In this document: positions 36,515-64,000 of the stretch, piece by piece
How positions within the stretch are numbered: the stretch's first letter is position 1
Layout of the letters: every line of letters starts with the position of its first letter
Source: Polaribacter sp. NJDZ03
GTDB taxonomy: Bacteria > Bacteroidota > Bacteroidia > Flavobacteriales > Flavobacteriaceae
Reading direction: 5' to 3'
Assembly: GCF_019263805.1 (NCBI RefSeq)
Contig: NZ_CP079195.1
Span: forward strand, 2,207,501 to 2,271,500
Length of the DNA stretch: 64,000 nucleotides
Made by a program: the position numbers and the translations under genes
Notes under the pieces: model-generated
What the model saw: the letters and a program-made list of their open reading frames with translations, nothing else
Told to the model about the DNA's origin: nothing
The model's database searches: none

Positions 36515-37672
36515 TTGGAAAAACTACCAACTATTTATCTGGAACAAAAGAATCATAGAAAGGAAGATCATCTTTTGGTTAGATTTACCTATGATAAAAA
36601 GTTAGTTACTCTTGTTAAGTCTATTAAAGATACTTATTGGAGTCAAAATTTAACCGCTTGGTATTTAAAAAACACACCAGAAAATTTAAAGAAAATCACC
36701 ACTCTTTTTAAAGGTATTACTGAAGTTGATACTTCTAAAATAAATAAAAAAATCCTTTTTAAAAGAGACTTAACTGAAAGTGAGAAAAAACTATTAAACA
36801 CCTTTTATCTTTTTTTAAAAGGGAAAAGGTATAGTAAAAGCACCATACAGACTTATACTTTTTTTATTGCTGATTTTGTAAATTTCCACACAAAAATTCC
36901 TTTAGATGAACTTACCAATAGAAGTGTTGAACTTTTTATTGAAAAAGTTTTTATAGAACGAGATTATTCAATTAGCTCTCAAAGACAGTTTATAAGTGCC
37001 TTAAAGATTTTTATTATTTTTTGTCCACAAACCAAAATTAATGATCTTGTATTAGAAAGACCTAAGAAATCTAGAAAGTTACCTAGTGTTTTATCACAAG
37101 AGGAAGTTTTAGAGATAATAAGGTGTACACAAAACTTAAAACACCGAGCAATTTTAGCATTGATTTATTCTTGCGGATTACGAATTAGTGAACTTACAAA
37201 TTTAGAATTGGTAGATTTTCATATTGAAAGAAAACAACTGATAGTAAAAAATGGAAAAGGCAGAAAAGACAGATACGTTAGTTTAGCAGATAGTTTTTTA
37301 CCTCTTTTATCTAATTATTACTATTCTTACAAACCAAAGATTTATTTTGTAGAAGGACAAAACGGAGGAAAATATAGCACAGAAAGTGTGCGACAATTTT
37401 TAAGAAAAAGTTGTGCGAGAGCTAGAATCAAAAAGACAGTAACTCCTCATACTTTAAGACATAGTTATGCAACTCATTTATTAGAAAATGGTGTTGACAT
37501 TAGATATATTCAATCTTTGTTGGGACATGCAAAACCAGAAACTACGATGATCTATACACATGTAAGAAGAAAGGATTTAATGGAAATTCAGAACCCTCTG
37601 GACATTGCTTTACAGAAATTAAATAAGTCCGATAAAGACAAGGGAAATGTTTTATTATCCCGGGATATTTAA
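36515..37672 (+). CDS. Tyrosine recombinase at the head of the cassette array (candidate cassette integrase, not IntI-type)
   Basis: This 385-residue protein starts at a TTG. Residues 1-80 form an extra N-terminal domain (YWSQNLTAWYLKNTPENLKK). A SAM-like core-binding domain spans about 88-180 and the catalytic domain about 190-365. All catalytic residues are visible: Arg223 (CGLRISEL), Lys248 (NGKGRKDR), His312 and Arg315 (PHTLRHSYAT), His338 (LLGHAK) and Tyr347 (MIYTHV). The Lys-to-His gap is 64 residues, XerC/D-like, whereas IntI1 has about 106 because of its extra domain. So the IntI hallmark is missing. The EGQNGGKYS segment and NPLD tail are typical of a recombinase family widespread in Bacteroidota. 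It points towards the array, whose first cassette border lies 34 bp past its stop. Catalysis of cassette insertion is inferred from position. Confidence 0.9.
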   Translation: MEKLPTIYLEQKNHRKEDHLLVRFTYDKKLVTLVKSIKDTYWSQNLTAWYLKNTPENLKKITTLFKGITEVDTSKINKKILFKRDLTESEKKLLNTFYLFLKGKRYSKSTIQTYTFFIADFVNFHTKIPLDELTNRSVELFIEKVFIERDYSISSQRQFISALKIFIIFCPQTKINDLVLERPKKSRKLPSVLSQEEVLEIIRCTQNLKHRAILALIYSCGLRISELTNLELVDFHIERKQLIVKNGKGRKDRYVSLADSFLPLLSNYYYSYKPKIYFVEGQNGGKYSTESVRQFLRKSCARARIKKTVTPHTLRHSYATHLLENGVDIRYIQSLLGHAKPETTMIYTHVRRKDLMEIQNPLDIALQKLNKSDKDKGNVLLSRDI

Positions 37673-37711
37673 GTAAAAATCAATACATTTGATTTAATAT
37701 AAGCCGTTGCC
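37673..37711 (+). other. attI-like site: recombinase-proximal border of the cassette array
   Basis: The spacer between the recombinase stop and the first cassette ends in AAGCC followed by the core GTTGCC at 37706-37711. By analogy with integrons the exchange point is after the G, at 37706. Unlike the borders inside the array it is not preceded by the attC arms (no GCAAC...ACAACAACG), so it is the unique primary site. The role is inferred. Confidence 0.7.
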
Positions 37712-38323
37712 AAAAACTGGTGAATCGAGCCGAATACAAGTCATTTATTTAAATATAATTTTGGCTTTTTTTTAGTTTGTAAATCGGAATTCTGAAAAAA
37801 GCGGAACACTCTCTCGCTAATCAAAATTTTGAAAAGTTGGAGAAGTTTTCAAAATTTTACAAAAAAGGAATTTACTCAAAAGCTGAAATCAAGATTGCGG
37901 AGAAATTACTCAAATATGAATTTCCATACTTTGCGGAATTGAGCAAAATACAGAACAAAAATTGTGTGGAATTTTCTCTAAAATATAATTTAGAAAGGCT
38001 GAGAATTTTCTGAAAATTAAATAAAGTGAAAATTATTGTCGGAATTAAGCACGTGAGAAAACAATCAGACGCTGAAAAACCAAAATTGCGGAATTGGAAA
38101 TGTCTGAAAAATGGAAATTACTGAAATGCGTTGTTGTAAATTAAAAATAATCTGAAAAATGAACGAAATATGGAAATGGAAATAAAATAACGCATTTGGC
38201 AACACCTTGTATAAAAAATTGCTAAATTTGGCTTAATCAAAGGTTGTTGCATTTTAATAAACTCTATTTTTCCTGCGGAAAAATGCCGTTCATTTAAAAC
38301 GCAACTTTCCATACAAAACAACG
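37707..38323 (+). other. Cassette 1: ORF-poor cassette, family I (copy 1 of 4)
   Basis: It starts TTGCCAAAAACTGGTGAATC and ends in attC1. No long gene is present. The same body recurs at 48045, 52341 and 54569. This copy lacks 37 bp between two GCGGAATT-like words near 38090 that the other three keep, consistent with a slip deletion. A short frame, TTG at 37837 to stop at 38013 (58 codons, MEKFSKFYKK...), is open in all four copies. It is AT-rich and may be chance. Confidence 0.85.
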
Positions 38324-38329
38324 TTAGCT
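38197..38329 (+). repeat. attC1
   Basis: Cassette recombination site. R'' TGGCAAC is complementary to this cassette's own left border GTTGCCA. Arms TTGTATAAAAAATTGC and GCAACTTTCCATACAA pair. The central hairpin is TTTTTCCTGCGGAAAAA. It ends at GTTAGCT, the border of cassette 2. Identical to attC10 and attC18. Confidence 0.92.
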
Positions 38330-38424
38330 TTAATTGACGAGCAACTTTTGAAACATCAAAAAACATTGAGGTCTTTTTTATACAATCAAAACCTTAAGAC
38401 AATAATAATTAATAAAAGTAAAAT

Positions 38425-39531
38425 ATGGAAATAGACAAATTAGACCTGAATGAGGTTTTAAAAAAATTTAAAAAAGATTTGGAAAGTTACAAAAACGCAA
38501 AAATCAAATGTGGAATTATTGGTAGAAGCGGAACTGGAAAATCATCTTTAATTAATGCTATTGCAGGAGAAGAAGTTGCCGAGGTTGGAGAAATCGAAAC
38601 TACAATGAATGTTAACGAACCAATTGAACACGGAGGTTTACTATTTTATGACTTACCCGGTTGTTCAACTTCTAATTTTCCGAAAGAAAATTATATTAAC
38701 GAATTTAATATTGAAGAATTTGATTGTGTTATTCTAGTTACAGCGGATAGATTTTATGATGATGACTTATTTTTAATGCAAGAATTAATCCGAATTAAAA
38801 AACCTGTATACGCCGTAAGAACTAAAATGGATTTTGCTGTAGATAGAGGTTTAAAAAGAGGAATTAATGAAAAAGAAACATATGGAAAGATTTATAACAA
38901 TCTTTCTGAAAATCTAAAAGGATTCAGAATCAAAGGAATCTATTTAACATCATCTGACTATCCAAATGAGTATGATTTAAGTAAATTATTAGAAGATATT
39001 TATTCCAGTTTAAGTAATTTCAAAAAAGAAAGATTTATTGCCGACATAAATATCACTAGTGAAAATATACTTTTAGAAAAAAGAAAAATAGCAGATAAAA
39101 TAGTTTCACGTTATTCTGCATTAGCCGCTGCTAATGGTCTAAACCCAATACCTGGACTTGACATCGGTGTTGACATAACATTAATGGTTAAATTGTCAAA
39201 AGAAGTTCAGAACATTTACGGACTGAATGAAGAACAACAAGAATACAACAAACAACTTTTAGATCAAAAAAGTATAAAATTGATTGCAAGTAAAGTTCTT
39301 CAGTACACTGCGAGATATGGTGGAAAAGAAGCAATTATGATTCTTTTGAAAAAAGCAAGCACAACATTAATTGCGAAAACAGCTTCAAAATGGATTCCTT
39401 TAGTGGGTTCAATAATTGCAGCTGGAATAGGATTTAAAATGACATCTTGGATTGGAAATGATATGATTGTAGATGCAGAAGAAATAGCACAAGAAACATT
39501 TAATTCATTTAAGAAAACGGAAAACAACTAA
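38425..39531 (+). CDS. Cassette 2: IRG-like GTPase
   Basis: This 368-residue protein has a G domain whose P-loop is GRSGTGKSS (33-41). Switch and G3 motifs are GEIETTMNV and FYDLPGCST, and G4 is VRTKMD. This layout, with a long C-terminal helical region containing hydrophobic stretches (NPIPGLDIGVDITLMV, WIPLVGSIIAAGIGF), resembles the interferon-inducible (IRG) GTPase group, which acts at membranes. Bacterial members are of unknown function; some dynamin or IRG-like GTPases are suspected in phage defence. It fills its cassette (38324-39657) alone, and its stop touches attC2. Confidence 0.8.
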   Translation: MEIDKLDLNEVLKKFKKDLESYKNAKIKCGIIGRSGTGKSSLINAIAGEEVAEVGEIETTMNVNEPIEHGGLLFYDLPGCSTSNFPKENYINEFNIEEFDCVILVTADRFYDDDLFLMQELIRIKKPVYAVRTKMDFAVDRGLKRGINEKETYGKIYNNLSENLKGFRIKGIYLTSSDYPNEYDLSKLLEDIYSSLSNFKKERFIADINITSENILLEKRKIADKIVSRYSALAAANGLNPIPGLDIGVDITLMVKLSKEVQNIYGLNEEQQEYNKQLLDQKSIKLIASKVLQYTARYGGKEAIMILLKKASTTLIAKTASKWIPLVGSIIAAGIGFKMTSWIGNDMIVDAEEIAQETFNSFKKTENN

Positions 39532-39663
39532 AGCTAACACCGTATAAAAAAAATTGCTAATAAAAGCCTACTTACGAAAGTTCTCGCGAACTTTCTTTGT
39601 AGGTTATTATTTGCTAACTTTACTACTAAACCACGCAACTTTTCTTATACAACAACGTTGTAA
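39532..39663 (+). repeat. attC2 (arm type C)
   Basis: R'' AGCTAAC is complementary to the left border GTTAGCT of cassette 2; the match extends to 10 bases (TAAAGCTAAC). The central hairpin GAAAGTTCTCGCGAACTTTC is GC-clamped. It ends at GTTGTAA, the start of cassette 3. Confidence 0.92.
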
Positions 39664-39686
39664 GTAATTTACCAGAACAATAGAAA

Positions 39687-40682
39687 ATGAAGAAAATATT
39701 GACAAACGTTATTTTAATTTTTATAACATTAGCAAGTCAAGCACAGGTTAAAAAGATTGAATTAGAAAATCGTAATGGTAAATATTATGAAATAGGAAAA
39801 GAGATTCCTTTTACTGGAGAATCTTATACCTTCTATTCTGAAAACAAAAAAGAAACATTTACAGAATTCACTGATGGAGAATTGAACGGTGAAATGAAAA
39901 AATGGTTTCCTAACGGAAAAATTGAAGTTTCCGGAAAAATGGTTAAAGGAAAAAAAAATGGTAATTGGATAGCTTGGTTTTCTAATGGTAATAAACTGAG
40001 AGAAGGAATATACAAAGACAATAAAGAAGAAGGAAAATTTACTTGGTGGTATGAAAACGGAAAATTAAAAAAGAGAGGTTTTTATAAAAATGGAACTTCT
40101 AATGGGAAATGGACTTGGTACTTTAATAACGGACAAAAAGAGTCTGAAGGAAAATTATTAAGCGAAACTAATATTGGAAAATGGTTTTGGTGGAATGAAA
40201 AAGGAGAATTAATTCACGAAAAGGATTTTTCTGAAAAATTAGAAAATAAAGCCTTTAATAAATTAATAATTGGGAAATGGAATTATATAAAATCTACTGA
40301 CAAAGAAAATAAATCTATTAAACACGTTATTCGTAAATACCCAAATGGGAAAGAAATGAAAATTGTTGCAAGTGGGCCAAATATTATTATTAAAAATGAT
40401 GGTACTTACGAGAAAAAATTCACGAAAGAAAATACAGATTACGGGAATTGGGAAATGCTAAAAAAAGATGAAATTAAATTTGAAATGGTTATTCCTAAAA
40501 ATTCTGAACAAGCAAAATTTATTGCTATAGCTCAAAAAGCTATGGGTAAAAAATGGAAAGAAGATGAAAAAGGAAATTATCTTGATTCTTCTACAAGTAA
40601 AATAATTTCATTAACAGATACAATAATGAAAATCGAATATGAAAAAAATTACGTTTTGATTTATAAAAAAGAATCCGAATAA
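39687..40682 (+). CDS. Cassette 3: secreted MORN-repeat (YwqK-like) protein with lipocalin-like C-terminus
   Basis: This 331-residue protein has a signal peptide ending at LASQAQ. Residues 55-175 are MORN-type repeats (GEMKKWFPNGKIEVSGKM, GNWIAWFSNGNKLREG, GKFTWWYENGKLKKRG, GKWTWYFNNGQKESEG), as in proteins annotated YwqK-family antitoxin. The C-terminal part (IIGKWNYIKSTDKEN ... NDGTYEKKF) resembles a lipocalin-like sandwich. The protein is probably periplasmic or surface exposed, and its function is not known. It is the only gene in cassette 39658-40817. Confidence 0.8.
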   Translation: MKKILTNVILIFITLASQAQVKKIELENRNGKYYEIGKEIPFTGESYTFYSENKKETFTEFTDGELNGEMKKWFPNGKIEVSGKMVKGKKNGNWIAWFSNGNKLREGIYKDNKEEGKFTWWYENGKLKKRGFYKNGTSNGKWTWYFNNGQKESEGKLLSETNIGKWFWWNEKGELIHEKDFSEKLENKAFNKLIIGKWNYIKSTDKENKSIKHVIRKYPNGKEMKIVASGPNIIIKNDGTYEKKFTKENTDYGNWEMLKKDEIKFEMVIPKNSEQAKFIAIAQKAMGKKWKEDEKGNYLDSSTSKIISLTDTIMKIEYEKNYVLIYKKESE

Positions 40683-40689
40683 AAACTAC

Positions 40690-40823
40690 TTACAACACCG
40701 TATATAATTTATTGCTGGCTTCTCGCCTACTTACGAAAGTCCTCGCGGACTTTCTTGGTCGGTAATTATTTACTAAATTAGGTGCTTGAAACACGCAACA
40801 AACCATATACAACAACGTTGTAA
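40690..40823 (+). repeat. attC3 (arm type C)
   Basis: R'' TTACAAC is complementary to the border GTTGTAA of cassette 3, extending to TACTTACAAC against GTTGTAAGTA. Arms GTATATAATTTATTGC and GCAACAAACCATATAC. The hairpin is GAAAGTCCTCGCGGACTTTC. Confidence 0.92.
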
Positions 40824-41537
40824 AAAACTGGTTGATTTCATAATTAAAAAGCAACAGTTCTTTTAAAACAGCATTTTACTTTTAAATGAAAAACTAAAAA
40901 TACATAGAAAATTATTTGAATAATTCTAATTTCTAATAAAGCAAAACTGAATTAAAATCTTTGTGGAAATTCTAATAAAATGAAAATTACAAAAAGCTGA
41001 GAAACTTCAAGTTTTCAAATAATAAAATTCTAAAACTCAAAATGAAGATTTAAAATCCTTGTGAAATTTTACAATAAAATGAAAATTATAGAAAGCTGAA
41101 AAATTTCGAATTTATTATATAATCAAATATTAAAACCCAAAATGAAGATTTAAAATCGTTGCGGAATTTCTAGTAAAATGAAAATTACAATAAGCTGAAA
41201 AACTTAGAGTTTTAAAAAAATGAAATGGAAATTTAAATCTTTGTGGAGTATTAAATAAATGAAAAACCTGAATCAATAATTTAAGATTAGAAAATTCTAT
41301 AAAACTCATTTTTTACGATTTGAATTTTTATCGAAACTTTAAAAAAAATATTGTAAATTTCATCAAAATATAGAACTAGTAATTAAGATACAGAATTAAA
41401 TACGCATTTTACAACACCGTGTATAAAAAATTGCTAGTTTTAGCTTTAGTAAAGGTTATTGCTTTTTTTGCTCACTCCTATTTTCCTTCGGAAAATAGCC
41501 GCTCACTTAAAACGCAACTTTCCATAACACAACAACG
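40818..41537 (+). other. Cassette 4: ORF-less cassette, family II
   Basis: No supportable gene. The body is made of about four degenerate units of roughly 125 bp containing the words TTTGTGGAAATTCTAATAAAA, ATGAAAATTA and AGCTGAAAAATTT. The start TTGTAAAAAACTGGTTGATT and the end are shared with cassette 7, which has one unit fewer. Confidence 0.85.
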
Positions 41538-41543
41538 TTGGGC
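41409..41543 (+). repeat. attC4 (arm type A)
   Basis: R'' TTACAAC matches the border GTTGTAA of cassette 4, with nine bases complementary. Arms GTGTATAAAAAATTGC and GCAACTTTCCATAACAC have one unpaired extra base. The hairpin is ATTTTCCTTCGGAAAAT. It ends at GTTGGGC. Confidence 0.92.
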
Positions 41544-42247
41544 GTAAGTTAAAAGTAAACTCAGATAAGCTATAAAAATTCGTTATTTTAAAGATAAATT
41601 AACCATAAAAAAAGTGAAATATTGAATTTTAATACAATTTAGAAAAACTGAAAAATTTAGAGTTTCAAGAAAATGAAAAATTGAACGCAGCCAAACTTTA
41701 TGAGAACTAAAATTTCAAGATTTAAGAAAATTTAGAAAAAGCTGAAAAATTTAGAGTTTTAAGAAAACGAAAAATTGAACGCAGCCAAACTTTGAGAGAA
41801 CAAAAATTTCAAGGTTTAAGATAATTTAGAAAAAGCTGAAAAATTTAGAGTTTTAAGAAAACGAAAAATTGAACGCAGCCAAACTTTGTGAGAACTAAAA
41901 TTTCAAGATTTAAGACAATTTAGAAAAAGCTGAAAAATTTAGAGTTTTAAGAAAACGAAAAATTGAACGCAGCCAAACTTTGTGAGAACTAAAATTTCAA
42001 GATTTAAGACAATTTAGAAAAAGTTGAAAAATTTAGAGTTTTAAGAAAACGAAAAATGTTCTGAATGTAAAATAATTAGGAATTTAATTTAGAAAAATCG
42101 ATAAATAAAATAACCTACGCCCAACACCGTGTATAAAAAATTGCTTATTTTTATCCTAACCAAAAGTAGTTGCTTTTTTGTGAACATCAATTTTCCTGCG
42201 GAAAATAGCCGTTCACTTTAAACGCAACTTTCCATAACACAACAACG
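41538..42247 (+). other. Cassette 5: ORF-less cassette of 94-bp tandem repeats, family III (copy 1)
   Basis: The word GAACGCAGCCAAACTTT recurs at 41683, 41777, 41871 and 41965, exactly 94 bp apart. Each unit also holds GCTGAAAAATTTAGAGTTTT. No coding frame is supported. Cassette 20 is the same cassette with five occurrences of this word and an identical attC. Confidence 0.9.
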
Positions 42248-42253
42248 TTAGCA
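42119..42253 (+). repeat. attC5 (arm type A)
   Basis: R'' GCCCAAC matches the border GTTGGGC, extending to TACGCCCAAC against GTTGGGCGTA. The hairpin is ATTTTCCTGCGGAAAAT. The sequence looks identical to attC20. Confidence 0.92.
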
Positions 42254-42816
42254 AAAACTGTTGAAAGTATAATTTAAGATCAAAAGTTATATAAATAAAC
42301 ATTCTACTTTTAAAGCTTGAAAAAAATAAAATTCGGAGAAAATTGTAGGAAAAATAAAATTATGGAACACTCTCTCGCTAATCAAAATTCTGAAAGGATT
42401 TTGTTGGTTTTTAAGATTTTAAAGTTCCGAAATTTAATCAAATCCATATTCTAGTTCAGAATTTAGAAGCTCTTAAAAAAGGAAAAAAACTTTGCGGAAT
42501 TTAGCCTGTTTGAAAAATTATCTAAATGTGAATTTACTCAAACGCTGAAAAAACAAAATTTTGGAATTGAGCAAAATACAGAATGAAAAAGCTTTGCGGA
42601 ATACTTAATCAAAAGCTGAATTTTGCAAAACGTGAAAAAGAAAAAAAATAGAAATGAAGGAAAAATTAGCTAAAAATAAAAACACGCATTTGCTAACACC
42701 GTGCATAATTTATTGCTTGCGTAGTTTTTCCGTTGGAAAAACCTCGCACACATAAAAGTCTGGTATTTTAATTATTTTTTCGCTAAATTTACGCAACAAA
42801 CCATAGCACAACAACG
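42248..42816 (+). other. Cassette 6: ORF-less cassette related to family I
   Basis: No gene is supported. It shares the words GGAACACTCTCTCGCTAATC, TTTGCGGAATT and ACTCAAACGCTGAAAAA with the family I cassettes, but in a rearranged, more degenerate order. Confidence 0.8.
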
Positions 42817-42822
42817 TTGTAA
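42691..42822 (+). repeat. attC6 (arm type D)
   Basis: R'' TGCTAAC matches GTTAGCA of cassette 6. The arms are GTGCATAATTTATTGC and GCAACAAACCATAGCAC. The GTGC/GCAC change, against GTGT/ACAC elsewhere, preserves pairing. The hairpin is TTTTTCCGTTGGAAAAA. Confidence 0.9.
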
Positions 42823-43495
42823 AAAACTGGTTGATTTCATAATTAAAAAGCAACAGTTCTTTTAAAACAGCATTTTACTTTTAAATGAAAAACTAAAAAT
42901 ACCTAGAAAATTATTTGAATAATTCTAATTTCTAATAAAGCAAAACTGAATTAAAATCTTTGTGGAAATTCTAATAAAATGAAAATTATAGAAAGCTGAA
43001 AAATTTCGATTTTATTATATAATCAAAAACTTAAAATGAATATTTAAAATCTTTGCGGAATTTCTAGTAAAATGAAAATTACAATAAGCTGAAAAACTTA
43101 GAGTTTTAAAAAACTAAAATGAAAATTTAAATCTTTGTGGAGTATCAAATAAATGAAAGATTTTAGAAAGCTGAAAAATTGAACTTTAAAAATTAATTAA
43201 ACGTTGAAAAAAGAGAAATGAAAAACCTGAATCAATAATTTAAAATTAGAAAATTCTATAAAACTCATTTTTTACGATTTGAATTTTTATCGAAACTTTA
43301 AAAAAATTATTGTAAATTTCATCAAAATATAGAACTAGTAATTAAGAGGCAGAATTTAATACGCATTTTACAACACCGTGTATAAAAAATTGCTAGTTTT
43401 AGCTTTATTAAAAGAAGTTGCTTTTTTGCTCACTCCTATTTTCCTACGGAAAATAGCCGTGCTTTTAAAACGCAACTTTCCATAACACAACAACG
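42817..43495 (+). other. Cassette 7: ORF-less cassette, family II (shorter copy)
   Basis: It is near-identical to cassette 4 at both ends, but one internal repeat unit is missing: the junction at ATAAAATGAAAATTATAGAA fuses two of cassette 4's units. About 40 bp near 43150-43220 are present here and absent in cassette 4. Confidence 0.85.
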
Positions 43496-43501
43496 TTAGG
43501 C
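43368..43501 (+). repeat. attC7 (arm type A)
   Basis: R'' TTACAAC matches GTTGTAA. It is close to attC4 with scattered changes in the variable region. The hairpin is ATTTTCCTACGGAAAAT. It ends at GTTAGGC. Confidence 0.92.
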
Positions 43502-43519
43502 AAAATTGAATACAAATTC

Positions 43520-44947: not shown

Positions 44948-44957
44948 AAACAACTTT

Positions 44958-45091
44958 GCCTAACACCGTGTATTAAAAATTGCTAAATTAGTACTTAATT
45001 AAAAGCAGTTGCATTTTTGTGAACTACAATTTTCCTTCGGAAAATAGCCGTTCACTTAAAACGCAACTTTCAATACACAACAACGTTGGCA
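44958..45091 (+). repeat. attC8 (arm type A)
   Basis: R'' GCCTAAC matches GTTAGGC, extending to TTTGCCTAAC against GTTAGGCAAA. Arms GTGTATTAAAAATTGC and GCAACTTTCAATACAC pair over all 16 positions if minus-strand G-T wobbles are allowed. It ends at GTTGGCA. Confidence 0.93.
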
Positions 45092-45112
45092 ACAATATGA
45101 AACCGAACTAAT

Positions 45113-46165: not shown

Positions 46166-46169
46166 GATA

Positions 46170-53844: not shown

Positions 53845-53849
53845 ACAAT

Positions 53850-54574: not shown

Positions 54575-55220
54575 AAAACTGGTGAATCGAGCCGAATACA
54601 AGTCATTTATTTAAATATAATTTTGGCTTTTTTTTAGTTTGTAAATCGGAATTCTGAAAAAAGCGGAACACTCTCTCGCGAATCAAAATTTTGAAAAGTT
54701 GGAGAAGTTTTCAAAATTTCACAAAAAAGGAATTTACTCAAACGCTGAAATCAAGATTGCGGAGAAATTACTCAAATATGAATTTCCATACTTTGCGGAA
54801 TTGAGCAAAATGCAGAACAAAAATTGTGTGGAATTTTCTCTAAAATATAATTTAGAAAGGCTGAGAATTTTCTGAAAATTAAATAAAGTGAAAATTATTG
54901 TCGGAATTAAGCACGTGAGAAAACAATCAGACGCTGAAAAACCAAAATTGCGGAATTTTTACTCAGAATTTAATTTATCAAGTTTACGGAATTGGAAATG
55001 TCTAAAAAATGGAAATTACTGAAATGTGTTGTTGTAAATTAAAATAATCTGAAAAATGAACGAAATATGGAAATGGAAATAAAATAACGCATTTGGCAAC
55101 ACCTTGTATAAAAAATTGCTAAATTTGGCTTAATCAAAGGTTGTTGCATTTTAATAAACTCTATTTTTCCTGCGGAAAAATGCCGTTCATTTAAAACGCA
55201 ACTTTCCATACAAAACAACG
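54569..55220 (+). other. Cassette 18: ORF-poor cassette, family I (copy 4)
   Basis: It appears to match cassette 10 through body and attC. The region holds no supportable gene other than the short open frame noted for cassette 1. Confidence 0.87.
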
Positions 55221-55226
55221 TTGTAA
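55094..55226 (+). repeat. attC18
   Basis: R'' TGGCAAC matches GTTGCCA. The sequence matches attC1 and attC10. It ends at GTTGTAA. Confidence 0.92.
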
Positions 55227-55233
55227 ACAAGCT

Positions 55234-56400: not shown

Positions 56401-56423
56401 ATTTGAAACTGATAAAAGCCAGT

Positions 56424-56557
56424 TTACAACACCGTATATAATTTATTGCTGGCTTCTCGCCTACTTACGAAAGTCCTCGCGGACTTTATTGGTCGGTAAT
56501 TATTTACTAAATTAGTTGCTTGAAACACGCAACAAACCATATACAAACACGTTGGGC
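56424..56557 (+). repeat. attC19 (arm type C)
   Basis: R'' TTACAAC matches GTTGTAA. It is close to attC3 and distinct from attC4 and attC7, which use the same core. Hairpin GAAAGTCCTCGCGGACTTT. It ends at GTTGGGC. Confidence 0.92.
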
Positions 56558-57355
56558 GTAAGTTAAAAGTAAACTCAGATAAGCTATAAAAATTCGTTAT
56601 TTTAAAGACAAATTAACCATAAAAAAAGTGAAATATTGAATTTTAAGACAATTTAGAAAAACTGAAAAATTTAGAGTTTCAAGAAAATGAAAAATTGAAC
56701 GCAGCCAAACTTTATGAGAACTAAAATTTCAAGATTTAAGACAATTTAGAAAAAGCTGAAAAATTTAGAGTTTTAAGAAAACGAAAAATTGAACGCAGCC
56801 AAACTTTGTGAGAACTAAAATTTCAAGATTTAAGACAATTTAGAAAAAGTTGAAAAATTTAGAGTTTTAAGAAAACGAAAAATTGAACGCAGCCAAACTT
56901 TGTGAGAACTAAAATTTCAAGATTTAAGACAATTTAGAAAAAGCTGAAAAATTTAGAGTTTTAAAAAAACGAAAAATTGAACGCAGCCAAACTTTGTGAG
57001 AACTAAAATTTCAAGATTTAAGACAATTTAGAAAAAGTTGAAAAATTTAGAGTTTTAAGAAAACGAAAAACTGAACGCAGCCAAACTTTGTGAGAACTAA
57101 AATTTCAAGGTTTAAGACAATTTAGAAAAAGTTGAAAAATTTAGAGTTTTAAGAAAACGAAAAATGTTCTGAATGTAAAATAATTAGGAATTTAATTTAG
57201 AAAAATCGATAAATAAAATAACCTACGCCCAACACCGTGTATAAAAAATTGCTTATTTTTATCCTAACCAAAAGTAGTTGCTTTTTTGTGAACATCAATT
57301 TTCCTGCGGAAAATAGCCGTTCACTTTAAACGCAACTTTCCATAACACAACAACG
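56552..57355 (+). other. Cassette 20: ORF-less cassette of 94-bp tandem repeats, family III (copy 2)
   Basis: The word GAACGCAGCC (once preceded by ACT instead of ATT) occurs at 56697, 56791, 56885, 56979 and 57073, each 94 bp apart, one more than in cassette 5. The flanks and attC match cassette 5. No coding frame. Confidence 0.9.
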
Positions 57356-57361
57356 TTGGCT
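57227..57361 (+). repeat. attC20 (arm type A)
   Basis: R'' GCCCAAC matches GTTGGGC, extending to TACGCCCAAC. It looks identical to attC5. It ends at GTTGGCT. Confidence 0.92.
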
Positions 57362-57399
57362 GTAATGCAAAACCGAAATAAACTGTAAAACAAAAAAGA

Positions 57400-57789
57400 A
57401 TGAGTACAATAGTTTTTAACCGAGAAATAAAGAGACTAATTTCAAACGAAAATCATCCTGTATTGAACTTTATAAAAGATGAATTTAAAAACAGCAATCG
57501 GAATAAAAGTTATTATGGATTTTTTGATAGTTTTTTATTCAATTATGGAGTTTTGACTTTAGGTTACTCACCAATAATAAATGGAAATAAATATGTTCCA
57601 TATGTAAATTGCAGTCGGAATAATATTTTTCGTGAGGAAAAAGGAATTACAGACTTATCACAAAAAGCTGAAAATATGACTGAATGTCAAAAAATAATGG
57701 CTGAATATTTAATTAGTCGTTTGAAATGTTTGAATGTTGAAAACTTTAAATCCTGGAATTCTGAATTGAATTACGAAATTTTAGCCTGA
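57400..57789 (+). CDS. Cassette 21: small hypothetical protein
   Basis: This 129-residue soluble protein starts at ATG (MSTIVFNREIKRLISNENHP). It contains NKSYYGFFDSFLFNYGVLTL and YVPYVNCSRNNIF and ends in a helix. There is no signal peptide and the family is not recognised. A likely real gene because it fills its cassette (57356-57930) in the expected orientation and ends just before attC21. Confidence 0.62.
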   Translation: MSTIVFNREIKRLISNENHPVLNFIKDEFKNSNRNKSYYGFFDSFLFNYGVLTLGYSPIINGNKYVPYVNCSRNNIFREEKGITDLSQKAENMTECQKIMAEYLISRLKCLNVENFKSWNSELNYEILA

Positions 57790-57802
57790 AAGAAAACACT
57801 AC

Positions 57803-57936
57803 AGCCAACACCGTATAAAAAAAATTGCTAAATTAGTGCTTAATTAAAGGCAGTTGCATTTTTATCAACTTCTGAATTTCCTTCGGAAATTCCTCGCTGA
57901 CAAAACCGCAACTTTCCTTATACATCAACGTTAGCA
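57803..57936 (+). repeat. attC21 (arm type A variant)
   Basis: R'' AGCCAAC matches GTTGGCT, extending to TACAGCCAAC against GTTGGCTGTA. The central hairpin is longer, GAATTTCCTTCGGAAATTC. It ends at GTTAGCA. Confidence 0.92.
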
Positions 57937-57960
57937 CACATAAAAAAATCCAAGAGAAAG

Positions 57961-59169
57961 ATGGGAACATTTATTACTTTATTAATTGTTGGAGGAATTA
58001 TTCTTTTGATTGTGAAATCTTCTAAAAAAAGTACACAATCAAAAAATAACACGAAGGAACAAAATCCAATAACTGTTGAAATAAAAACATCTTATAGTTC
58101 AAGTTCAAGTTCATATAAAGCAGAAAAATTCCCGCCAATTCAACAAGATTCTAATGAAGATTGGATTTTAAATCCTAAATCACCATTTAAACTCACACTA
58201 CAAAATGCAGAAAAGCAAATAGCGGAAAAAATAAGAATAATTTTAGATGACGATGAAATTAGAGAATATGAAAAAGAAAAGGAATTAGTTGGACTATTCG
58301 CATTACATAATCTTCGTCTTAAAGAAATAGAATCTTATAAAAATGAATATGGAAAACAATATTTTGAAAAAATTGAAAAACTAAAAAAAGAATCAAAAGA
58401 TTGGGAAATTTCAGGAATTAAAGACAAAGAAGATATTCTTATAGACTTTAGAAAAACAGCAATAAGTGAACTTTACGAAAGAGCTAATTGCAATTTAGAA
58501 ATACTTTTTGAACACGAGCCAAAAGACATAACAATAGACGATGAATTAATAAAGGAATATGGTTTTAAAAATATACAAACATATTTAAGTTACGCAGATA
58601 AATTAGATAAAGTTCGTGTAATGTCAGCAGATTCATATCCTCGACCAATATTTGAAAAACTTTCTGAATTGGGATTATCAAAAAGAGGAAATGAAATACC
58701 GAATGACGAAATATTACTCACTTTAACTCTTAAAGACCTAAATCAAATAGCAGATAATCAGGAAAAGAAATATTACAGAAAAAAACAAGCTGTAGATTTT
58801 ATTTTAGAAAAAAATAATGTAGAAGAGTTAATTGGAAAGAAAATTTCACTGAGAGAACTTTTTAAATTAAATCCATTACCGGAAAAATACAATTCGATTA
58901 ATCTCAATGAACTTTCCAAAACTTGGAAATATCACGAAGAAGAAGTAAAATTACTAACACAAACATTTAGAAATTCATTTTATTCCTGGCAAGAACTAAG
59001 AGGAGATAAAGAATATATTAAAGGATATAAAGTTCAACCATTACATAACGAAAATGCTTGCCCAAAAGCGATAGAATGTTCTAAGAAAAAGTATTCAAAA
59101 AATTCACCACCGAAAGTACCATTTCATATTGGTTGTGATTGTTATTTGAATCAAGAATTGGACTTTTAA
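57961..59169 (+). CDS. Cassette 22: membrane-anchored hypothetical protein with C-terminal Cys cluster
   Basis: This 402-residue protein has one N-terminal membrane helix (FITLLIVGGIILLIV), then a Ser-rich linker (SYSSSSSSYK). A mostly helical, highly charged body follows. The tail has CPKAIECSKKK and HIGCDCYLNQ, four closely placed Cys plus His that could bind zinc. The family is not recognised; similar tails occur in small uncharacterised domains. It is alone in its cassette. Confidence 0.65.
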   Translation: MGTFITLLIVGGIILLIVKSSKKSTQSKNNTKEQNPITVEIKTSYSSSSSSYKAEKFPPIQQDSNEDWILNPKSPFKLTLQNAEKQIAEKIRIILDDDEIREYEKEKELVGLFALHNLRLKEIESYKNEYGKQYFEKIEKLKKESKDWEISGIKDKEDILIDFRKTAISELYERANCNLEILFEHEPKDITIDDELIKEYGFKNIQTYLSYADKLDKVRVMSADSYPRPIFEKLSELGLSKRGNEIPNDEILLTLTLKDLNQIADNQEKKYYRKKQAVDFILEKNNVEELIGKKISLRELFKLNPLPEKYNSINLNELSKTWKYHEEEVKLLTQTFRNSFYSWQELRGDKEYIKGYKVQPLHNENACPKAIECSKKKYSKNSPPKVPFHIGCDCYLNQELDF

Positions 59170-59188
59170 ATTAATCAAAAATTACGTG

Positions 59189-59324
59189 TGCTAACACCGT
59201 GTATAAAAAATTGCTTAATTTAGTACTTAACCAAAGTTAGTTGCATTTTTATAAACTTCTATTTTCCTGCGGAAAATAGCCGTTCATTTAAAACGCAACT
59301 TTCCATAACACAACAACGTTGGCA
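59189..59324 (+). repeat. attC22 (arm type A)
   Basis: R'' TGCTAAC matches GTTAGCA, extending to TGTGCTAAC against GTTAGCACA. Arms GTGTATAAAAAATTGC and GCAACTTTCCATAACAC. At 136 bp it is the longest copy. It ends at GTTGGCA. Confidence 0.92.
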
Positions 59325-59335
59325 ATAATTAAAAA

Positions 59336-60106
59336 ATGGAATTTGAAGAGATAATTTTTGAAGGATTAAGAAACACCTATTTTGAGCATCAGGAATTACA
59401 GTTCTCTTTTTTTGATGAGAATATTTTTAATATTACAGAATATTTAATTACTGTAAACATATGTAAGTCAATACACTTGTGGAATAAGAAAAATAAATAT
59501 CCATATAAAATTGAATTAGAAAAAAAGACATTTGATTTTTTTAGAAACTGTTTCGATAATCATAAACGTGATGGTGAAACTATTTTTTCTCCAACTATAT
59601 TTTCTATTCACGAAAAAGGATTTAAAGAAAATATAGAGAAAATAAGGAAAGGGAGATTAGATATTGCTTTAAGTAAAAACGAAACCAATTACAAGGGAAG
59701 TTCAGAATATATATTTGAAATTAAATCTATTAACCCACAACCGAGTCTATTATTAAAAGATTTTGAAAGAATTAAAAGATTTTTAAATACTGAAATTAAA
59801 GGTTTTAAAAATTATTTTAAAGCAGGTTATTTGATTTTCTTTATACATCATAACAATTTCAAAAAAATAGAAACTAAAAAGGAATTGTCTGATAAAAAAG
59901 AACAAAGGTTAAAACGAATTAAAGATAAATTAGAAGAAATATGTCCAAATAATATTTCATTAAAAATACAAACTGATAACATTGTACATTATGGAGTAGA
60001 ACAACTTAGATTGGAAAATGGTTTTGATTACAATGAAGAATCATATAAAACACTAATATTTTCTTCTGTAATAATAAAAATAGAAACTATTGCCAACACC
60101 GTATAA
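59336..60106 (+). CDS. Cassette 23: nuclease-like protein (possible PD-(D/E)XK fold), stop codon in attC
   Basis: This 256-residue soluble protein (MEFEEIIFEGLRNTYFEHQE) has a central GRLDIALSKNE strand followed by YIFEIKSIN, an Asp and Glu-X-Lys spacing seen in PD-(D/E)XK enzymes. The catalytic reading is by motif only and the family is not named. The frame continues through the R'' core and ends at the TAA in CCGTATAA of attC23, so the last residues (ANTV) come from the site. Confidence 0.65.
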   Translation: MEFEEIIFEGLRNTYFEHQELQFSFFDENIFNITEYLITVNICKSIHLWNKKNKYPYKIELEKKTFDFFRNCFDNHKRDGETIFSPTIFSIHEKGFKENIEKIRKGRLDIALSKNETNYKGSSEYIFEIKSINPQPSLLLKDFERIKRFLNTEIKGFKNYFKAGYLIFFIHHNNFKKIETKKELSDKKEQRLKRIKDKLEEICPNNISLKIQTDNIVHYGVEQLRLENGFDYNEESYKTLIFSSVIIKIETIANTV

Positions 60107-60223
60107 ACTTTATTGCTGGTTTTAGCTCACTTGGGAAATTCCTCCGGAATTTCGCCGTTCGTGTTTTATTTACTAAATTCACTGCTGAAACAACGCAACA
60201 AAGCTTATACAACAACGTTGGCA
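60091..60223 (+). repeat. attC23 (arm type B)
   Basis: R'' TGCCAAC matches GTTGGCA, extending to ATTGCCAAC against GTTGGCAAT. Hairpin GAAATTCCTCCGGAATTTC. It provides the stop codon for the cassette gene. Confidence 0.92.
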
Positions 60224-60307
60224 TTCATTGAGAGCCACTTTATAAAAAAAGTAGATAAGAATAATTTTTTAAGTCGTTATCCTAAGGAATTTAAAAAGCG
60301 AAAAAAC

Positions 60308-60907
60308 ATGAATAATAGTAAAATAGTAATAGTAATTTTGAGTCTTTGTATCTTTTCTTGTAAAAAAGAAAACAAATATGATAATCCCGAAAAATTATGT
60401 CAAATAATTAAAAAAATCCATGATGATGATCAGAAATATAGACAATTAATGATAGATCCATTTTTTGATATATTAGATTCAATTAAAAAGTCTGAAGGTA
60501 TCTCTAAGAAAGAGTATAGCGGTTTTTCAGAAGAGAAGCAGTTGGCTTATGGGAGAATTGCAAGAGCAATTACAAACAAACGAGAATTGAAGTTTACTAA
60601 ACAGCAAGAGGACTCCTTAATGCAATTGCAAATAGTACTTGACAATAAAAATACAGAATTATTAATAGATATTATCAAAAAAAGAGGTTTCCCAAATCTT
60701 CCTGATTGTAAAGAAGAACAATTTCCTGCTATAACTTTAAGGCACTCGCAAAATCAATATTGGGATGAAATAAGAATTTTAATTGAGAAAGAATTTAAAT
60801 TAGGTAACATGAATAAAGGGCAATTTAAAATTATATTAAATCATATAAATGGTCGTGAAGAGTTTAGTATAACAAAAGAGAAATTTAGCAATTTAGAACT
60901 TAAATAA
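60308..60907 (+). CDS. Cassette 24: hypothetical lipoprotein
   Basis: This 199-residue protein starts at the ATG at 60308 (MNNSKIVIVILSLCIFSCKK), a lipoprotein signal with Cys18. A longer open frame reaches back into attC23 but reads through the recombination site and is rejected as the start. The mature protein is helical and charged (KEYSGFSEEKQLAYGRIARA, RGFPNLPDCKEEQFPAITLR). The family is not recognised. About 90 bp between the border and the start could hold a promoter. Confidence 0.7.
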   Translation: MNNSKIVIVILSLCIFSCKKENKYDNPEKLCQIIKKIHDDDQKYRQLMIDPFFDILDSIKKSEGISKKEYSGFSEEKQLAYGRIARAITNKRELKFTKQQEDSLMQLQIVLDNKNTELLIDIIKKRGFPNLPDCKEEQFPAITLRHSQNQYWDEIRILIEKEFKLGNMNKGQFKIILNHINGREEFSITKEKFSNLELK

Positions 60908-61008
60908 TGATGTTTTTTATTATGACCTTATATTAAATTTATTAAACAGAAATTTTAAAATAGAAAGAAAAACATTAGCGAATAAAACTAACCTTAAAAA
61001 CAACGAAA

Positions 61009-61141
61009 TGCCAACACCGTATAAACTTTATTGCTGGTTTTAGCTCACTTGGGAAATTCCTCCGGAATTTCGCCGTTCGTGTTTTATTTACTAAATTCAC
61101 TGCTTAAACAACACAACAAAGCTTATACATCAACGTTGGGC
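61009..61141 (+). repeat. attC24 (arm type B)
   Basis: R'' TGCCAAC matches GTTGGCA, and the extension AATGCCAAC against GTTGGCATT differs from that of cassette 23. One arm reads CACAACAAAGCTTATAC, a change of the usual CGCAAC. It ends at GTTGGGC. Confidence 0.92.
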
Positions 61142-61200
61142 ACAAGCAAAAAAAAGGAAGAAAAACAGTATAATAAAACATAAAATTATACTTTTACAAA

Positions 61201-62223
61201 ATGGAGAAAAAATCTAGTTTAACTAATCATCAAAGTGACTTAATAGAAAGTATTAAATCTATTATTTCAAATTCACGAAAAAAAGTTGCAACTAAGGTAA
61301 ATCATGAATTAATCCTGACTTATTGGAAAATTGGTGAACAAATTCTTTTGAATGAGCAGAAAGAAAGTCTTGATATGAAAACAGCAAATCAAGTAATTCT
61401 AAAACTTTCTAAAGAATTAACAAATGAATTAGGTCGTGGATTTTCTCGTTCTAATTTATTTAATATGAGAAAACTACATCTTGAATATAAAGATATCCAG
61501 ACACTGTCTGGACACTTAAGTTGGTCTCATCTCTGTGAATTATTAATAATAGAAAATTTAGAAAAAAGACAGTTTTATGAAACTGAGACAAAAAATTCTA
61601 AATGGTCAATAAGAGAATTAAAAAGACAAATAGATAGTTCTCTTTTTGAAAGATTATTACTTTCTTCTGGAAAAGCTAATAAAGAAAAAATAATAGAATT
61701 ATCTAAAAAAGGACAAGAAGTAACTAAACCTGAAGATATTGTAAAAAGTCCTTATGTTTTTGAATTTCTGGGAATTCCAGAAAACAAACCAATGCTAGAA
61801 AAAGATTTAGAAGCAAAGTTAATTAGACATATTGAGGATTTCTTATTAGAGTTAGGAAAAGGTTTTATGTTTGTTGGATCTCAACAAAGAGTAACAATTA
61901 ATAATACTCACTATTACGTAGATATGGTTTTTTATAACAAAATATTAAAATCATATATATTAATAGAACTTAAAACTACTAAGCTAAAAATATCAGATGG
62001 AGGACAATTAAACACTTATTTGAATTATTACAAAACTGAAGTTAATGATGATAATGACAATCCTCCTATTGGAATAATTTTATGTACCGAGAAAGATGAA
62101 ATTACAGCTGAATATATTTTAGGCGGATTTGAAAATAATGTATTTGCTTCAAAATACACTTACATATTACCAAACAAGGAAGATTTAATTAAAGAATTAG
62201 AAGAAGTAATTAAAAATGAATAG
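61201..62223 (+). CDS. Cassette 25: DUF1016/YhcG-family PDDEXK nuclease
   Basis: This 340-residue protein has the DUF1016 N-terminal helical domain at about 10-160 (RKKVATKVNHELILTYWKIG, LGRGFSRSNLFNMRKLHLEY, LSWSHLCELL) and the C-terminal PDDEXK nuclease at about 185-335. Catalytic residues are Asp241 (YVDMVFYNK), Glu256 and Lys258 (LIELKTTK). The family is common near restriction and mobile elements, and some members take part in DNA metabolism or defence. Activity is predicted, not shown. It is alone in its cassette with the stop just before attC25. Confidence 0.92.
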   Translation: MEKKSSLTNHQSDLIESIKSIISNSRKKVATKVNHELILTYWKIGEQILLNEQKESLDMKTANQVILKLSKELTNELGRGFSRSNLFNMRKLHLEYKDIQTLSGHLSWSHLCELLIIENLEKRQFYETETKNSKWSIRELKRQIDSSLFERLLLSSGKANKEKIIELSKKGQEVTKPEDIVKSPYVFEFLGIPENKPMLEKDLEAKLIRHIEDFLLELGKGFMFVGSQQRVTINNTHYYVDMVFYNKILKSYILIELKTTKLKISDGGQLNTYLNYYKTEVNDDNDNPPIGIILCTEKDEITAEYILGGFENNVFASKYTYILPNKEDLIKELEEVIKNE

Positions 62224-62228
62224 CCAGT

Positions 62229-62362
62229 GCCCAACACCGTGTATTAAAAATTGCTAAATTAGTGCTTAACCAAAAGTAGTTGCTTTTTTACTCACTTCAA
62301 TTTTCCAGTGGAAAATAGCCGCTAATTAAAAACGCAACTTTCAATACACAACAACGTTGGCA
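62229..62362 (+). repeat. attC25 (arm type A)
   Basis: R'' GCCCAAC matches GTTGGGC, extending to GTGCCCAAC. Arms GTGTATTAAAAATTGC and GCAACTTTCAATACAC. The central hairpin ATTTTCCAGTGGAAAAT is altered on both sides of its loop. It ends at GTTGGCA. Confidence 0.92.
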
Positions 62363-62380
62363 ATAATAAAAAACGAACCT

Positions 62381-63202
62381 ATGAAAAGAACAATTTTATT
62401 AGTAATTTTATTAGTATTTAATTATTCATATTCTCAAAATTTAACGATTTCGGGAATCGTAAAGACGAATAATAATAAAAAGTTAGAATATGTAAATATT
62501 GGAATTAAGAAAAAAAATATCGGGACAATTTCAAATGAAAATGGAAATTTTTCAATAATTTTTGATAAATCATTTATAAAAGATAGTCTTACTTTTTCCT
62601 ATGTAGGTTATAAAAATCTAACAATTAAAATAGAAGATATAAAGTCAAGAAAGTTAAATGAATTTATTTTATTTGAGGAACCAACTGAATTAAAGGAAGT
62701 TGTAATTTCTACAAGAAAAAGAAAAATAAGAAAATTAGGGACAAAATCTTATGTTTCAATGGTTGCTGGTTATCTTTGGAATAGAGAAAACTTTGAAAAC
62801 AGAGACATTATTGAACACGCAAAATATTTGAATATTAAAAAACCATCTAAAATACTAAATTTAAATATGAATTTATTCAATGTGTTTGTAGATTCAATGA
62901 CTTTTAGAATAAATTTTTATACGGTAAAAGATAAATTACCAAACAAAAGAATACATAATATCATTTTAACAAAAAACATAAAAGAAGGATGGAATTTATT
63001 CGATTTAAAGGATTTTGATTTAAAATATGACCAACCTGTTTTTATAACATTTGAATATATCCCAAAGACAAAAACAGATGAAGAACCTTGCAGAATAAGT
63101 GGACAATTTCTTGGAAAGTCTATTAATAGAGTTTCAAGTTTAGGTACTTGGAATATAAATAAAGGAAAATCAATGGCAATGTATGTTGAGATAGAACAAT
63201 AA
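62381..63202 (+). CDS. Cassette 26: secreted protein with carboxypeptidase-regulatory-like domain
   Basis: This 273-residue protein starts at ATG 62381 with a signal peptide (MKRTILLVILLVFNYSYSQ). An upstream in-frame TTG lies in the attC border and is not preferred. Residues 22-100 are a CarboxypepD_reg-like beta-sandwich (ISGIVKTNNNKKLEYVNIGI, NENGNFSIIF, LTFSYVGYKN), the same fold as at the SusC N-terminus, followed by ELKEVVIS. The C-terminal half (WNLFDLKDFDLKY, VFITFEYIPK) is a second sandwich. It is probably cell-envelope associated; its function is unknown. Confidence 0.8.
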   Translation: MKRTILLVILLVFNYSYSQNLTISGIVKTNNNKKLEYVNIGIKKKNIGTISNENGNFSIIFDKSFIKDSLTFSYVGYKNLTIKIEDIKSRKLNEFILFEEPTELKEVVISTRKRKIRKLGTKSYVSMVAGYLWNRENFENRDIIEHAKYLNIKKPSKILNLNMNLFNVFVDSMTFRINFYTVKDKLPNKRIHNIILTKNIKEGWNLFDLKDFDLKYDQPVFITFEYIPKTKTDEEPCRISGQFLGKSINRVSSLGTWNINKGKSMAMYVEIEQ

Positions 63203-63217
63203 ATTGAAAATTACTAT

Positions 63218-63350
63218 TGCCAACACCGTATAAACTTTATTGCTGGTTTTAGCTCACTTGGGAAATTCCTCCGGAATTTCGCCGTTCGTGTTTTATTTAC
63301 TAAATTCACTGCTTAAACAACGCAACAAAGCTTATACAACAACGTTAGCC
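63218..63350 (+). repeat. attC26 (arm type B)
   Basis: R'' TGCCAAC matches GTTGGCA, extending to ATTGCCAAC. Hairpin GAAATTCCTCCGGAATTTC. It ends at GTTAGCC, the border of the last, incomplete cassette. Confidence 0.92.
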
Positions 63351-63367
63351 AAAATTAAAATCCGAAC

Positions 63368-64000
63368 TTGAAACAAAGATTAGTAATAAAAGGAACAATA
63401 TTAACCTACGGAGAAAAATGGGTTGTTGGAAATGAAGATTATTCTTCAATATTGCTTTCTGTAGCTAATAGTTGGAAATCGAATAATTTTTCACCACAAG
63501 ACGAATTAACAGTAAATATTGAATCTTGGAAATCCAGAGAGTTTGGAAAAATAAAATCTTCAATTTATGGATATACTAGTGACTTACACAATCTTTCAAT
63601 TAACTATTGTTTTTTAAAGGAAACTCTTGAAAGTTCAGAAATTAATAAACATAAAGCTAATCTTTATGTTAGCTTACTTCTTGAAAATTATTTTACAAAC
63701 ATTCGTAGTCTTTATGATTTTTTATTTCACATTATAAAAATATGTTTAACAGATAAACAACTAAAAACATATCCTGAAACAGATTCTTTAAATAAACTTA
63801 TTAAGTTTTCAAAAAACAAAAATAATAAGGAAAAACTTCCTGAAAGAATTCAACATTTTCTTTTAGACATTGAACCCTATCTCGATGAAATCAGAACTAT
63901 AAGAGATTTTATTGTTCATAAAGGAAAGGAGATCATTATTACAAAAAAAGATAACCAACTGTTTATAAGAATCCCAAAAACAGGTTTATATAGTAATGAT
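63368..64000 (+). CDS. Cassette 27 (partial): HEPN-domain protein
   Basis: The frame starts at TTG 63368 (MKQRLVIKGTILTYGEKWVV) and is open for 211 codons to the window edge. The first 60 residues look strand-rich. From about 90 on it is helical, with LLENYFTNIRSLYDFLFHII and then RTIRDFIVHKGKE, the R-X4-H signature of HEPN domains (Arg179, His184). This resembles Cthe_2314-like HEPN proteins. RNase activity is possible. The C-terminus and attC lie beyond the window. Confidence 0.68.
   Translation, partial: MKQRLVIKGTILTYGEKWVVGNEDYSSILLSVANSWKSNNFSPQDELTVNIESWKSREFGKIKSSIYGYTSDLHNLSINYCFLKETLESSEINKHKANLYVSLLLENYFTNIRSLYDFLFHIIKICLTDKQLKTYPETDSLNKLIKFSKNKNNKEKLPERIQHFLLDIEPYLDEIRTIRDFIVHKGKEIIITKKDNQLFIRIPKTGLYSND

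What the first reader, a model, noticed from the sequence alone, without database searches (positions are those of the whole stretch)
36515..64000. Large integron-like cassette array in a Bacteroidota chromosome
At least 27 head-to-tail units each carry zero, one or two plus-strand genes and a 132-136 bp site. Each unit begins GTTRNNN and its terminal site begins with the exact reverse complement (GTTGCCA/TGGCAAC, GTTAGCT/AGCTAAC, GTTACCA/TGGTAAC, GTTAGGG/CCCTAAC, and so on). Because the matching is within a unit and not with its neighbour, each unit must once have been a closed circle carrying one complete site. This is the logic of integron cassettes. The complementarity reaches 9-10 bases in most units, longer than the usual 7-base core.
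Basis: partly seen in the sequence, partly recalled or inferred. Interest (0 to 1): 0.95.

Follow-up and report, generated by a model that had tools for sequence, protein, structure and literature searches.

The report
New integron type without IntI integrase
A marine Polaribacter chromosome carries a long array of exchangeable gene cassettes directly behind a recombinase that lacks the protein segment thought essential for integrons, so a known gene-capture machine has likely been built a second time from a different enzyme.

Summary
In detail: 26 complete head-to-tail units (window 37707-63344) plus the start of a 27th. Each unit's first 9-10 bases (GTTR...) are the exact reverse complement of its own terminal site (mean 9.6, against 4.0 for the next unit; 0 of 100,000 permutations reach it). 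The array reaches 35 sites over 36 kb in a 4.08-Mb single-contig genome of the genus Polaribacter. It is an integron-like platform: a recombinase gene (36515-37672), an attI-like site 34 bp after its stop codon, and attC-like sites predicted to form hairpins. In 54 of 60 sister loci sites lie downstream on the recombinase's strand, none in the about 3 kb held upstream. In 8 of 8 close pairs homology stops 2-11 bp past the predicted attI G/TT. Cassettes 80-97% identical sit between different neighbours in other species. The recombinase is not IntI: about 42 residues that IntI has are missing, taken to include the I2 region held essential, and it has an N-terminal domain predicted to resemble HARP/XPB domains. 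The design occurs in other Bacteroidota. Recombination itself is untested.

The parts
36515..37672 (+). Tyrosine recombinase (385 aa, TTG start), predicted integrase of the platform; catalytic residues R223, K248, H312, R315, H338, Y347
   Evidence: PF00589 9e-37; these residues invariant in the 25 rows of alignment A2; best curated model NF040815 XerA-like 213 bits, TIGR02249 IntI 202 bits, both below cut-off
36515..36778 (+). N-terminal domain of about 80-88 residues, predicted fold like HARP / XPB damage-recognition domains
37640..37709 (+). attI-like site; predicted cut between G 37706 and T 37707, 34 bp after the stop codon
   Evidence: TATAA-type motif before GTT within 260 nt of the stop in 54 of 61 loci, against 6.0% of random windows; junction by R'' match in 50 loci, 18 of them at exactly 34 bp
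37684..37691 (+). TAnnTTTG (-7-type promoter element of Bacteroidota, motif recalled), predicted cassette promoter
   Evidence: in 25 of 54 attI-like sites, always 22 nt before the G; 2.3% of random windows
37707..38323 (+). cassette 1, no + ORF; attC 38194-38323
38324..39657 (+). cassette 2, IIGP-type GTPase 38425-39531; attC 39529-39657
39658..40817 (+). cassette 3, MORN-repeat protein 39687-40682; attC 40687-40817
40818..41537 (+). cassette 4, no ORF; attC 41406-41537
41538..42247 (+). cassette 5, no ORF, 94-bp tandem repeat; attC 42116-42247
42248..42816 (+). cassette 6, no ORF; attC 42688-42816
42817..43495 (+). cassette 7, no ORF; attC 43365-43495
43496..45085 (+). cassette 8, ORF 43520-44947 (475 aa, no Pfam or NCBIfam match); attC 44955-45085
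45086..48044 (+). cassette 9, two ORFs: AraC-type regulator 45113-46165 and beta-lactamase-fold serine hydrolase 46239-47912; attC 47916-48044
48045..48696 (+). cassette 10, no ORF; attC 48567-48696
48697..49412 (+). cassette 11, ORF 48722-49300; attC 49282-49412
49413..50436 (+). cassette 12, ORF 49454-50305; attC 50307-50436
50437..51052 (+). cassette 13, no ORF; attC 50922-51052
51053..52340 (+). cassette 14, T9SS-sorted protein 51076-52197; attC 52210-52340
52341..52994 (+). cassette 15, no ORF, body 98.9% identical to cassettes 10 and 18 but a different attC; attC 52864-52994
52995..53838 (+). cassette 16, ORF 53020-53703; attC 53709-53838
53839..54568 (+). cassette 17, ORF 53850-54446; attC 54438-54568
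54569..55220 (+). cassette 18, no ORF; attC 55091-55220
55221..56551 (+). cassette 19, ORF 55234-56400; attC 56421-56551
56552..57355 (+). cassette 20, no ORF, 94-bp tandem repeat as in cassette 5; attC 57224-57355
57356..57930 (+). cassette 21, ORF 57400-57789; attC 57800-57930
57931..59318 (+). cassette 22, ORF 57961-59169; attC 59186-59318; a 99.9% copy (1262 bp) lies further down the array
59319..60217 (+). cassette 23, Tin-like defence protein 59336-60106; attC 60088-60217
60218..61135 (+). cassette 24, ORF ending 60907; attC 61006-61135
61136..62356 (+). cassette 25, YhcG/DUF1016 nuclease 61201-62223 (defence candidate PDC-S02); attC 62226-62356
62357..63344 (+). cassette 26, carboxypeptidase-regulatory-like protein ending 63202; attC 63215-63344
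63345..64000 (+). cassette 27, start only; the array goes on for 9 more sites to genome 2281609

Best explanation
This is a chromosomal integron-like platform in which a tyrosine recombinase without the IntI-specific I2 segment likely captures gene cassettes at a fixed attI-like site 34 bp behind its own stop codon. Shown from sequence: the layout recombinase - attI-like site - cassette array, the closed-circle signature of the cassettes, whole cassettes shared between species, and replacement of array content starting at the predicted attI G/TT. Predicted: each cassette's attC folds as a bottom-strand hairpin in which its own R'' and R' arms pair over 9-10 bp; [quoted passage not shown] Inferred: the N-terminal HARP/XPB-like domain, found in the genus members and nearly all outside loci tested but not in IntI or other Xer-type proteins, takes over the recognition of folded DNA that the I2 helix gives IntI. 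A TAnnTTTG element in attI would drive the first cassettes.
For: Circle signature: 26 of 26 units here; 394 of 502 units in 56 arrays, own included, have 9-10 complementary bases. Association: 54 of 60 sister recombinase loci have sites downstream on the same strand; 0 of 14 loci of other Xer-type recombinases of the genus have a site. Insertion point: attI-like motif in 54 of 61 loci, 6.0% of random windows; homology ends 2-11 bp past its G/TT in 8 of 8 close pairs. Mobility: 32 cassette bodies shared between arrays, 30 aligned from base 1; different neighbours in 23 of 23 evaluable, while the recombinase genes of 12 such array pairs are 66.5-81.5% identical. Folding: circle-form bottom strand more stable than top in 26 of 26 sites (mean -26.2 v -22.1 kcal/mol). 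Not IntI: spacing between the K-box and HxxRH is 58-59 residues in 59 of 59 genus members, 100 in 20 of 20 IntI, 62-66 in 14 other Xer-type; no IntI above cut-off in this genome; IntI rows group apart (SH-aLRT 99). Wider range.
Confidence: 0.8

Rival explanations
1. The array is moved by a canonical IntI acting in trans (elsewhere in the genome or on a plasmid); the neighbouring recombinase is a bystander.
For: A large array without a P0001-like gene exists in G085. Phage P12002L of a Polaribacter host carries attC sites, one of two tested being recombined by IntI1 in E. coli (PMC9892861, section 13 read).
Against: No TIGR02249 match over cut-off in this single-contig genome. The attI-like motif follows the recombinase gene in 54 of 61 loci. 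Of 395 genomes of the phylum 105 have IntI above cut-off, but only one of these is of the window's class or closer (G201).
Confidence: 0.06
2. The recombinase works on double-stranded sites like Xer or XerA; the folded attC is not the substrate.
For: The enzyme is nearest to XerA/Xer and IntI by model score and fold and lacks I2, which is held to confer single-strand recombination (PMC7790495, passages).
Against: Each of many different R' arms is matched by the R'' arm of the same unit over 9-10 bases, which a double-strand site would not need; bottom strand folds better in 26 of 26, if modestly.
Confidence: 0.17
3. A static repeat array grown by ordinary homologous recombination and duplication.
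For: Some cassettes are near-identical duplicates: cassettes 10, 15, 18 and cassette 22 with a later copy.
Against: Complementarity is within units, not between neighbours; breakpoints between close relatives fall at attI; shared cassettes have unrelated neighbours.
Confidence: 0.03

Closest known systems
Integrons with IntI (chromosomal and mobile)
   Same: Recombinase gene, attI, head-to-tail cassettes, attC with R''/R' pairing, G/TT joint; arm complementarity of 9-13 bases in the same-phylum IntI loci printed
   Different: Recombinase lacks the IntI-specific segment (58-59 v 100 residues between motifs), falls outside the IntI group, carries an extra N-terminal domain; the gene points into the array, with attI behind its 3' end
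XerA (archaeal) and XerC/XerD recombinases
   Different: Extra N-terminal domain, cassette arrays and attI beside it; 14 of 14 other Xer-type loci of the genus have no sites
Integron-like subgroup of simple tyrosine recombinases (PMC8138268, passages)
   Different: The passages seen do not describe cassette arrays, attI or attC for them, nor this N-terminal domain
CALIN of Polaribacter phage P12002L (PMC9892861, section 13 and passages)
   Same: Phage of the same genus with attC sites; a hit to the present type lies at 39121-39248 of that phage (E 1e-7)
   Different: No integrase; whether the two sites tested there are of this type could not be established

Membership tests
Integron (by function and layout) | site-specific recombinase gene adjacent to a cassette array | tested here: met
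   54 of 60 sister loci and the window
Integron (by function and layout) | attI insertion site next to the recombinase gene | tested here: met
   by sequence only: motif in 54 of 61 loci v 6.0% of random windows, homology break there in 8 of 8 close pairs
Integron (by function and layout) | cassettes each carrying own attC with complementary R''/R' arms | tested here: met
   26 of 26 here, 394 of 502 in 56 arrays at 9-10 bases
Integron (by function and layout) | attC bottom-strand hairpin | tested here: met
   predicted only: bottom more stable in 26 of 26
Integron (by function and layout) | demonstrated attI x attC recombination | not testable with these tools
   needs an assay
IntI integrase family | TIGR02249 above curated cut-off (265 bits) | tested here: not met
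   202 bits in two stretches, profile 177-240 unmatched
IntI integrase family | additional (I2) region around patch III | tested here: not met
   alignment; spacing 58-59 v 100 residues
XerC / XerD | TIGR02224 / TIGR02225 above cut-off | tested here: not met
   186.3 v 335.15 and 188 v 329.6 bits
XerA (NF040815) | above cut-off 220 bits | tested here: not met
   213.2 bits, just below
HARP domain (N-terminal part) | HARP profile or clear fold match | tested here: inconclusive
CALIN | attC cluster without neighbouring integrase | tested here: not met
   a recombinase with an attI-like site heads the array; that it is the integrase is inferred

The most novel reading that the evidence does not exclude
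Integrons arose twice: in Bacteroidota a Xer/XerA-like recombinase became a cassette integrase without the I2 helix, using an N-terminal HARP/XPB-like junction-recognition domain to grip folded single-stranded attC; this hidden class is widespread in the phylum and has been missed because integron surveys search for the IntI-specific domain.
Probability: 0.5. Interest if true: 0.93.

Novelty: new variant of a known kind. Interest (0 to 1): 0.87.

Why it matters
The I2 helix is described as necessary for capture activity, as conferring single-strand recombination and as found in no other protein (PMC7790495, passages). Integron surveys pick IntI by that additional domain (PMC8352920; PMC2426708) or name it a defining trait (PMC9668308); passages seen. 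A platform with the same cassette logic and no I2 makes that view directly testable and points to a second origin of integrons. It would also give the flavobacteria a large unnoticed gene-exchange system with defence-like cargo; IntegronFinder 2.0 named one complete integron in Bacteroidetes proper (PMC9024848, passage).

Tried and rejected
Chance: permutation and controls reject it. Long cores as a special trait: not supported. Rfam: only one tRNA in the window at gathering thresholds. Plasmid records: no match to the one attC site tried; phages: two records of one phage. Sequence search of the N-terminal domain against solved structures gave nothing credible (best E 0.057). The model-free chain test gives false chains in AT-rich controls (L226 chain 6, L222 chain 3; the L226 links are GTTT-type), so I use it only where the printed units start GTTA/GTTG and the chain is longer than in 10 shuffles. 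L279, L280 and L281 (of 16 testable outside loci) showed no array; L274 was doubtful. Of the 80 named loci, many of them plain Xer relatives, the site profile hit 6 at E 0.01 or better. The protein search scored only 8000 candidates. The junction placement put 10 of 50 loci 497-7364 bp from the stop, likely because the first cassette's attC was missed there.
Full report
What is there. The window is bases 2207501-2271500 of a 4.08-Mb single-contig genome rated 100% complete; named homologs place the genus as Polaribacter. From 37707 to 63344 it holds 26 complete units, each ending in a 132-136 bp site; a 27th begins at 63345. A covariance model of the sites finds 54 copies in the genome: 26 in the window, 9 directly after it up to 2281609, and 19 elsewhere. 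Each unit's start and its own terminal R'' arm are complementary over 9 or 10 bases in 26 of 26 units, while the match to the next unit is 3-7. This is the mark of a segment that was once a circle with one complete site. The circle-form bottom strand is predicted to be more stable than the top strand in 26 of 26 sites.

The same in relatives. The recombinase gene before the array (36515-37672) was sought in 166 genomes of the genus; I fetched 60 of the matching neighbourhoods, chosen by score and room on the contig, from 58 genomes. In 54 of 60, sites lie downstream on the same strand; none lies in the 0.4-3.5 kb held upstream, nor in the 36 kb upstream in the window; four sites in three loci are on the other strand. 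14 neighbourhoods of other Xer-type recombinases from the genus have no site. The site model finds at least one site in 156 of 166 genomes, counting at most 19 per genome. Across 502 units of 56 arrays, 394 show 9-10 complementary bases; the 107 lower ones likely include units with a missed site between. In the 396 units with 9 or more that were well delimited, position +11 is A in 100% and a C lies before the 10-base arm in 85%. The arm length is not a special trait: canonical IntI loci of the phylum can show 9-13.

The insertion site. The joint between leader and first cassette was placed in 50 loci by the R'' match: 18 at exactly 34 bp after the recombinase stop, 40 within 168 bp, and 10 at 497-7364 bp. 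A TATAA-type motif before GTT follows the stop within 260 bp in 54 of 61 loci, against 6.0% of random windows. In 8 of 8 close pairs (recombinase DNA above 88% identical; one pair is two copies in one genome) homology runs through the gene and ends 2-11 bp past that G/TT, after which the cassettes differ. TAnnTTTG lies exactly 22 nt before the G in 25 of 54, against 2.3% of random windows; that this is a promoter is an inference from a recalled consensus.

Exchange. 98 pairs of cassette bodies align over more than 85% of both; 66 lie within one array and 32 join arrays of different species. Of these 32, 30 align from base 1 of both units; of the 30 at 80% identity or more, all 23 with both neighbours known have different neighbours on both sides, the other 7 being not evaluable. 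The pairs are not independent: half belong to one noncoding cassette family (cassettes 10, 15, 18 and relatives) and six to another. Cassette identity reaches 96.7% where the recombinase genes of the same two arrays are 81% identical. In the own array cassettes 10 and 18 have identical bodies and cassette 22 has a 99.9% copy.

Range. Of 80 named loci, many of them plain Xer relatives, six hit the site profile at E 0.01 or better: downstream arrays in Algibacter onchidii, Winogradskyella ursingii, Seonamhaeicola aphaedonensis and Flavobacteriaceae S0862, one site in the Bacteroidetes MAG L148, and two upstream opposite-strand sites in L127. Chains of units also follow the gene in Flavobacterium aciduliphilum (L111) and L148. 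I fetched 20 further loci from other genera, chosen from the matches; 16 had more than 4 kb downstream. Of these 12 show sites or unit chains (8 by profile, 4 by chain alone, two of those only 3 against 2 in shuffles), three show none and one is doubtful. Among 395 genomes of the phylum, 105 have canonical IntI above cut-off, one of them in the window's class or closer.

Literature. Surveys seen here pick IntI by the additional domain and I2 is held to be essential. One survey of recombinases notes that the insertion is not fully conserved in its integron-like subgroup. My searches (open-access PMC only, no preprints) listed no paper that I recognised as describing these arrays; I saw listings and passages, and one section in full, not whole papers.

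Verdict. A real integron-like platform of a new class. The layout, circle signature, attI-like site and cassette sharing are shown from sequence; the recombination chemistry and the role of the N-terminal domain are inferred.

Noticed in passing
window 37707-38323, 40818-43495, 48045-48696, 50437-51052, 52341-52994, 54569-55220, 56552-57355: Ten of 26 cassettes have no + strand ORF of 60 aa or more; several recur (10/15/18 and 4/7; 1 and 5/20 by eye), and cassettes 5 and 20 hold a 94-bp tandem repeat in 4.6 and 5.6 copies. Function unknown.
   Followed up: partly
window 52341-52994: Cassette 15 has the body of cassettes 10 and 18 but a different attC, as if body and site had been recombined.
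   Followed up: no
window 59336-60106 and 61201-62223: Cargo resembles phage-defence proteins: Tin (E 5e-24) and PDC-S02/YhcG (E 1e-125).
   Followed up: no
L198 2997-3131 (Winogradskyella phage Peternella_1) and L199 39121-39248 (Polaribacter phage P12002L): Flavobacterial phages carry sites of this type, possible vehicles for cassettes.
   Followed up: partly
G000:C1 259598-265249 and other places: 19 site-model hits lie outside the main array, including a minus-strand cluster near 260 kb.
   Followed up: no
L234 from 19144, L235 to 2802; L236; L046: G085 has sites spread over about 79 kb without a P0001-like gene in the genome; G007's large array is not beside its P0001 ortholog, whose attI motif is missing.
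   Followed up: partly
L136, L139, L148: Relatives in other Bacteroidota have open frames of about 675-720 aa holding the recombinase and its N-terminal domain, so further fused parts are possible.
   Followed up: no
L075, L080, L092 attI region: Inverted repeats (such as TACGTCG...CGACGTA in L092), seen by eye, span the attI leader between the gene's end and the joint; role unknown.
   Followed up: no
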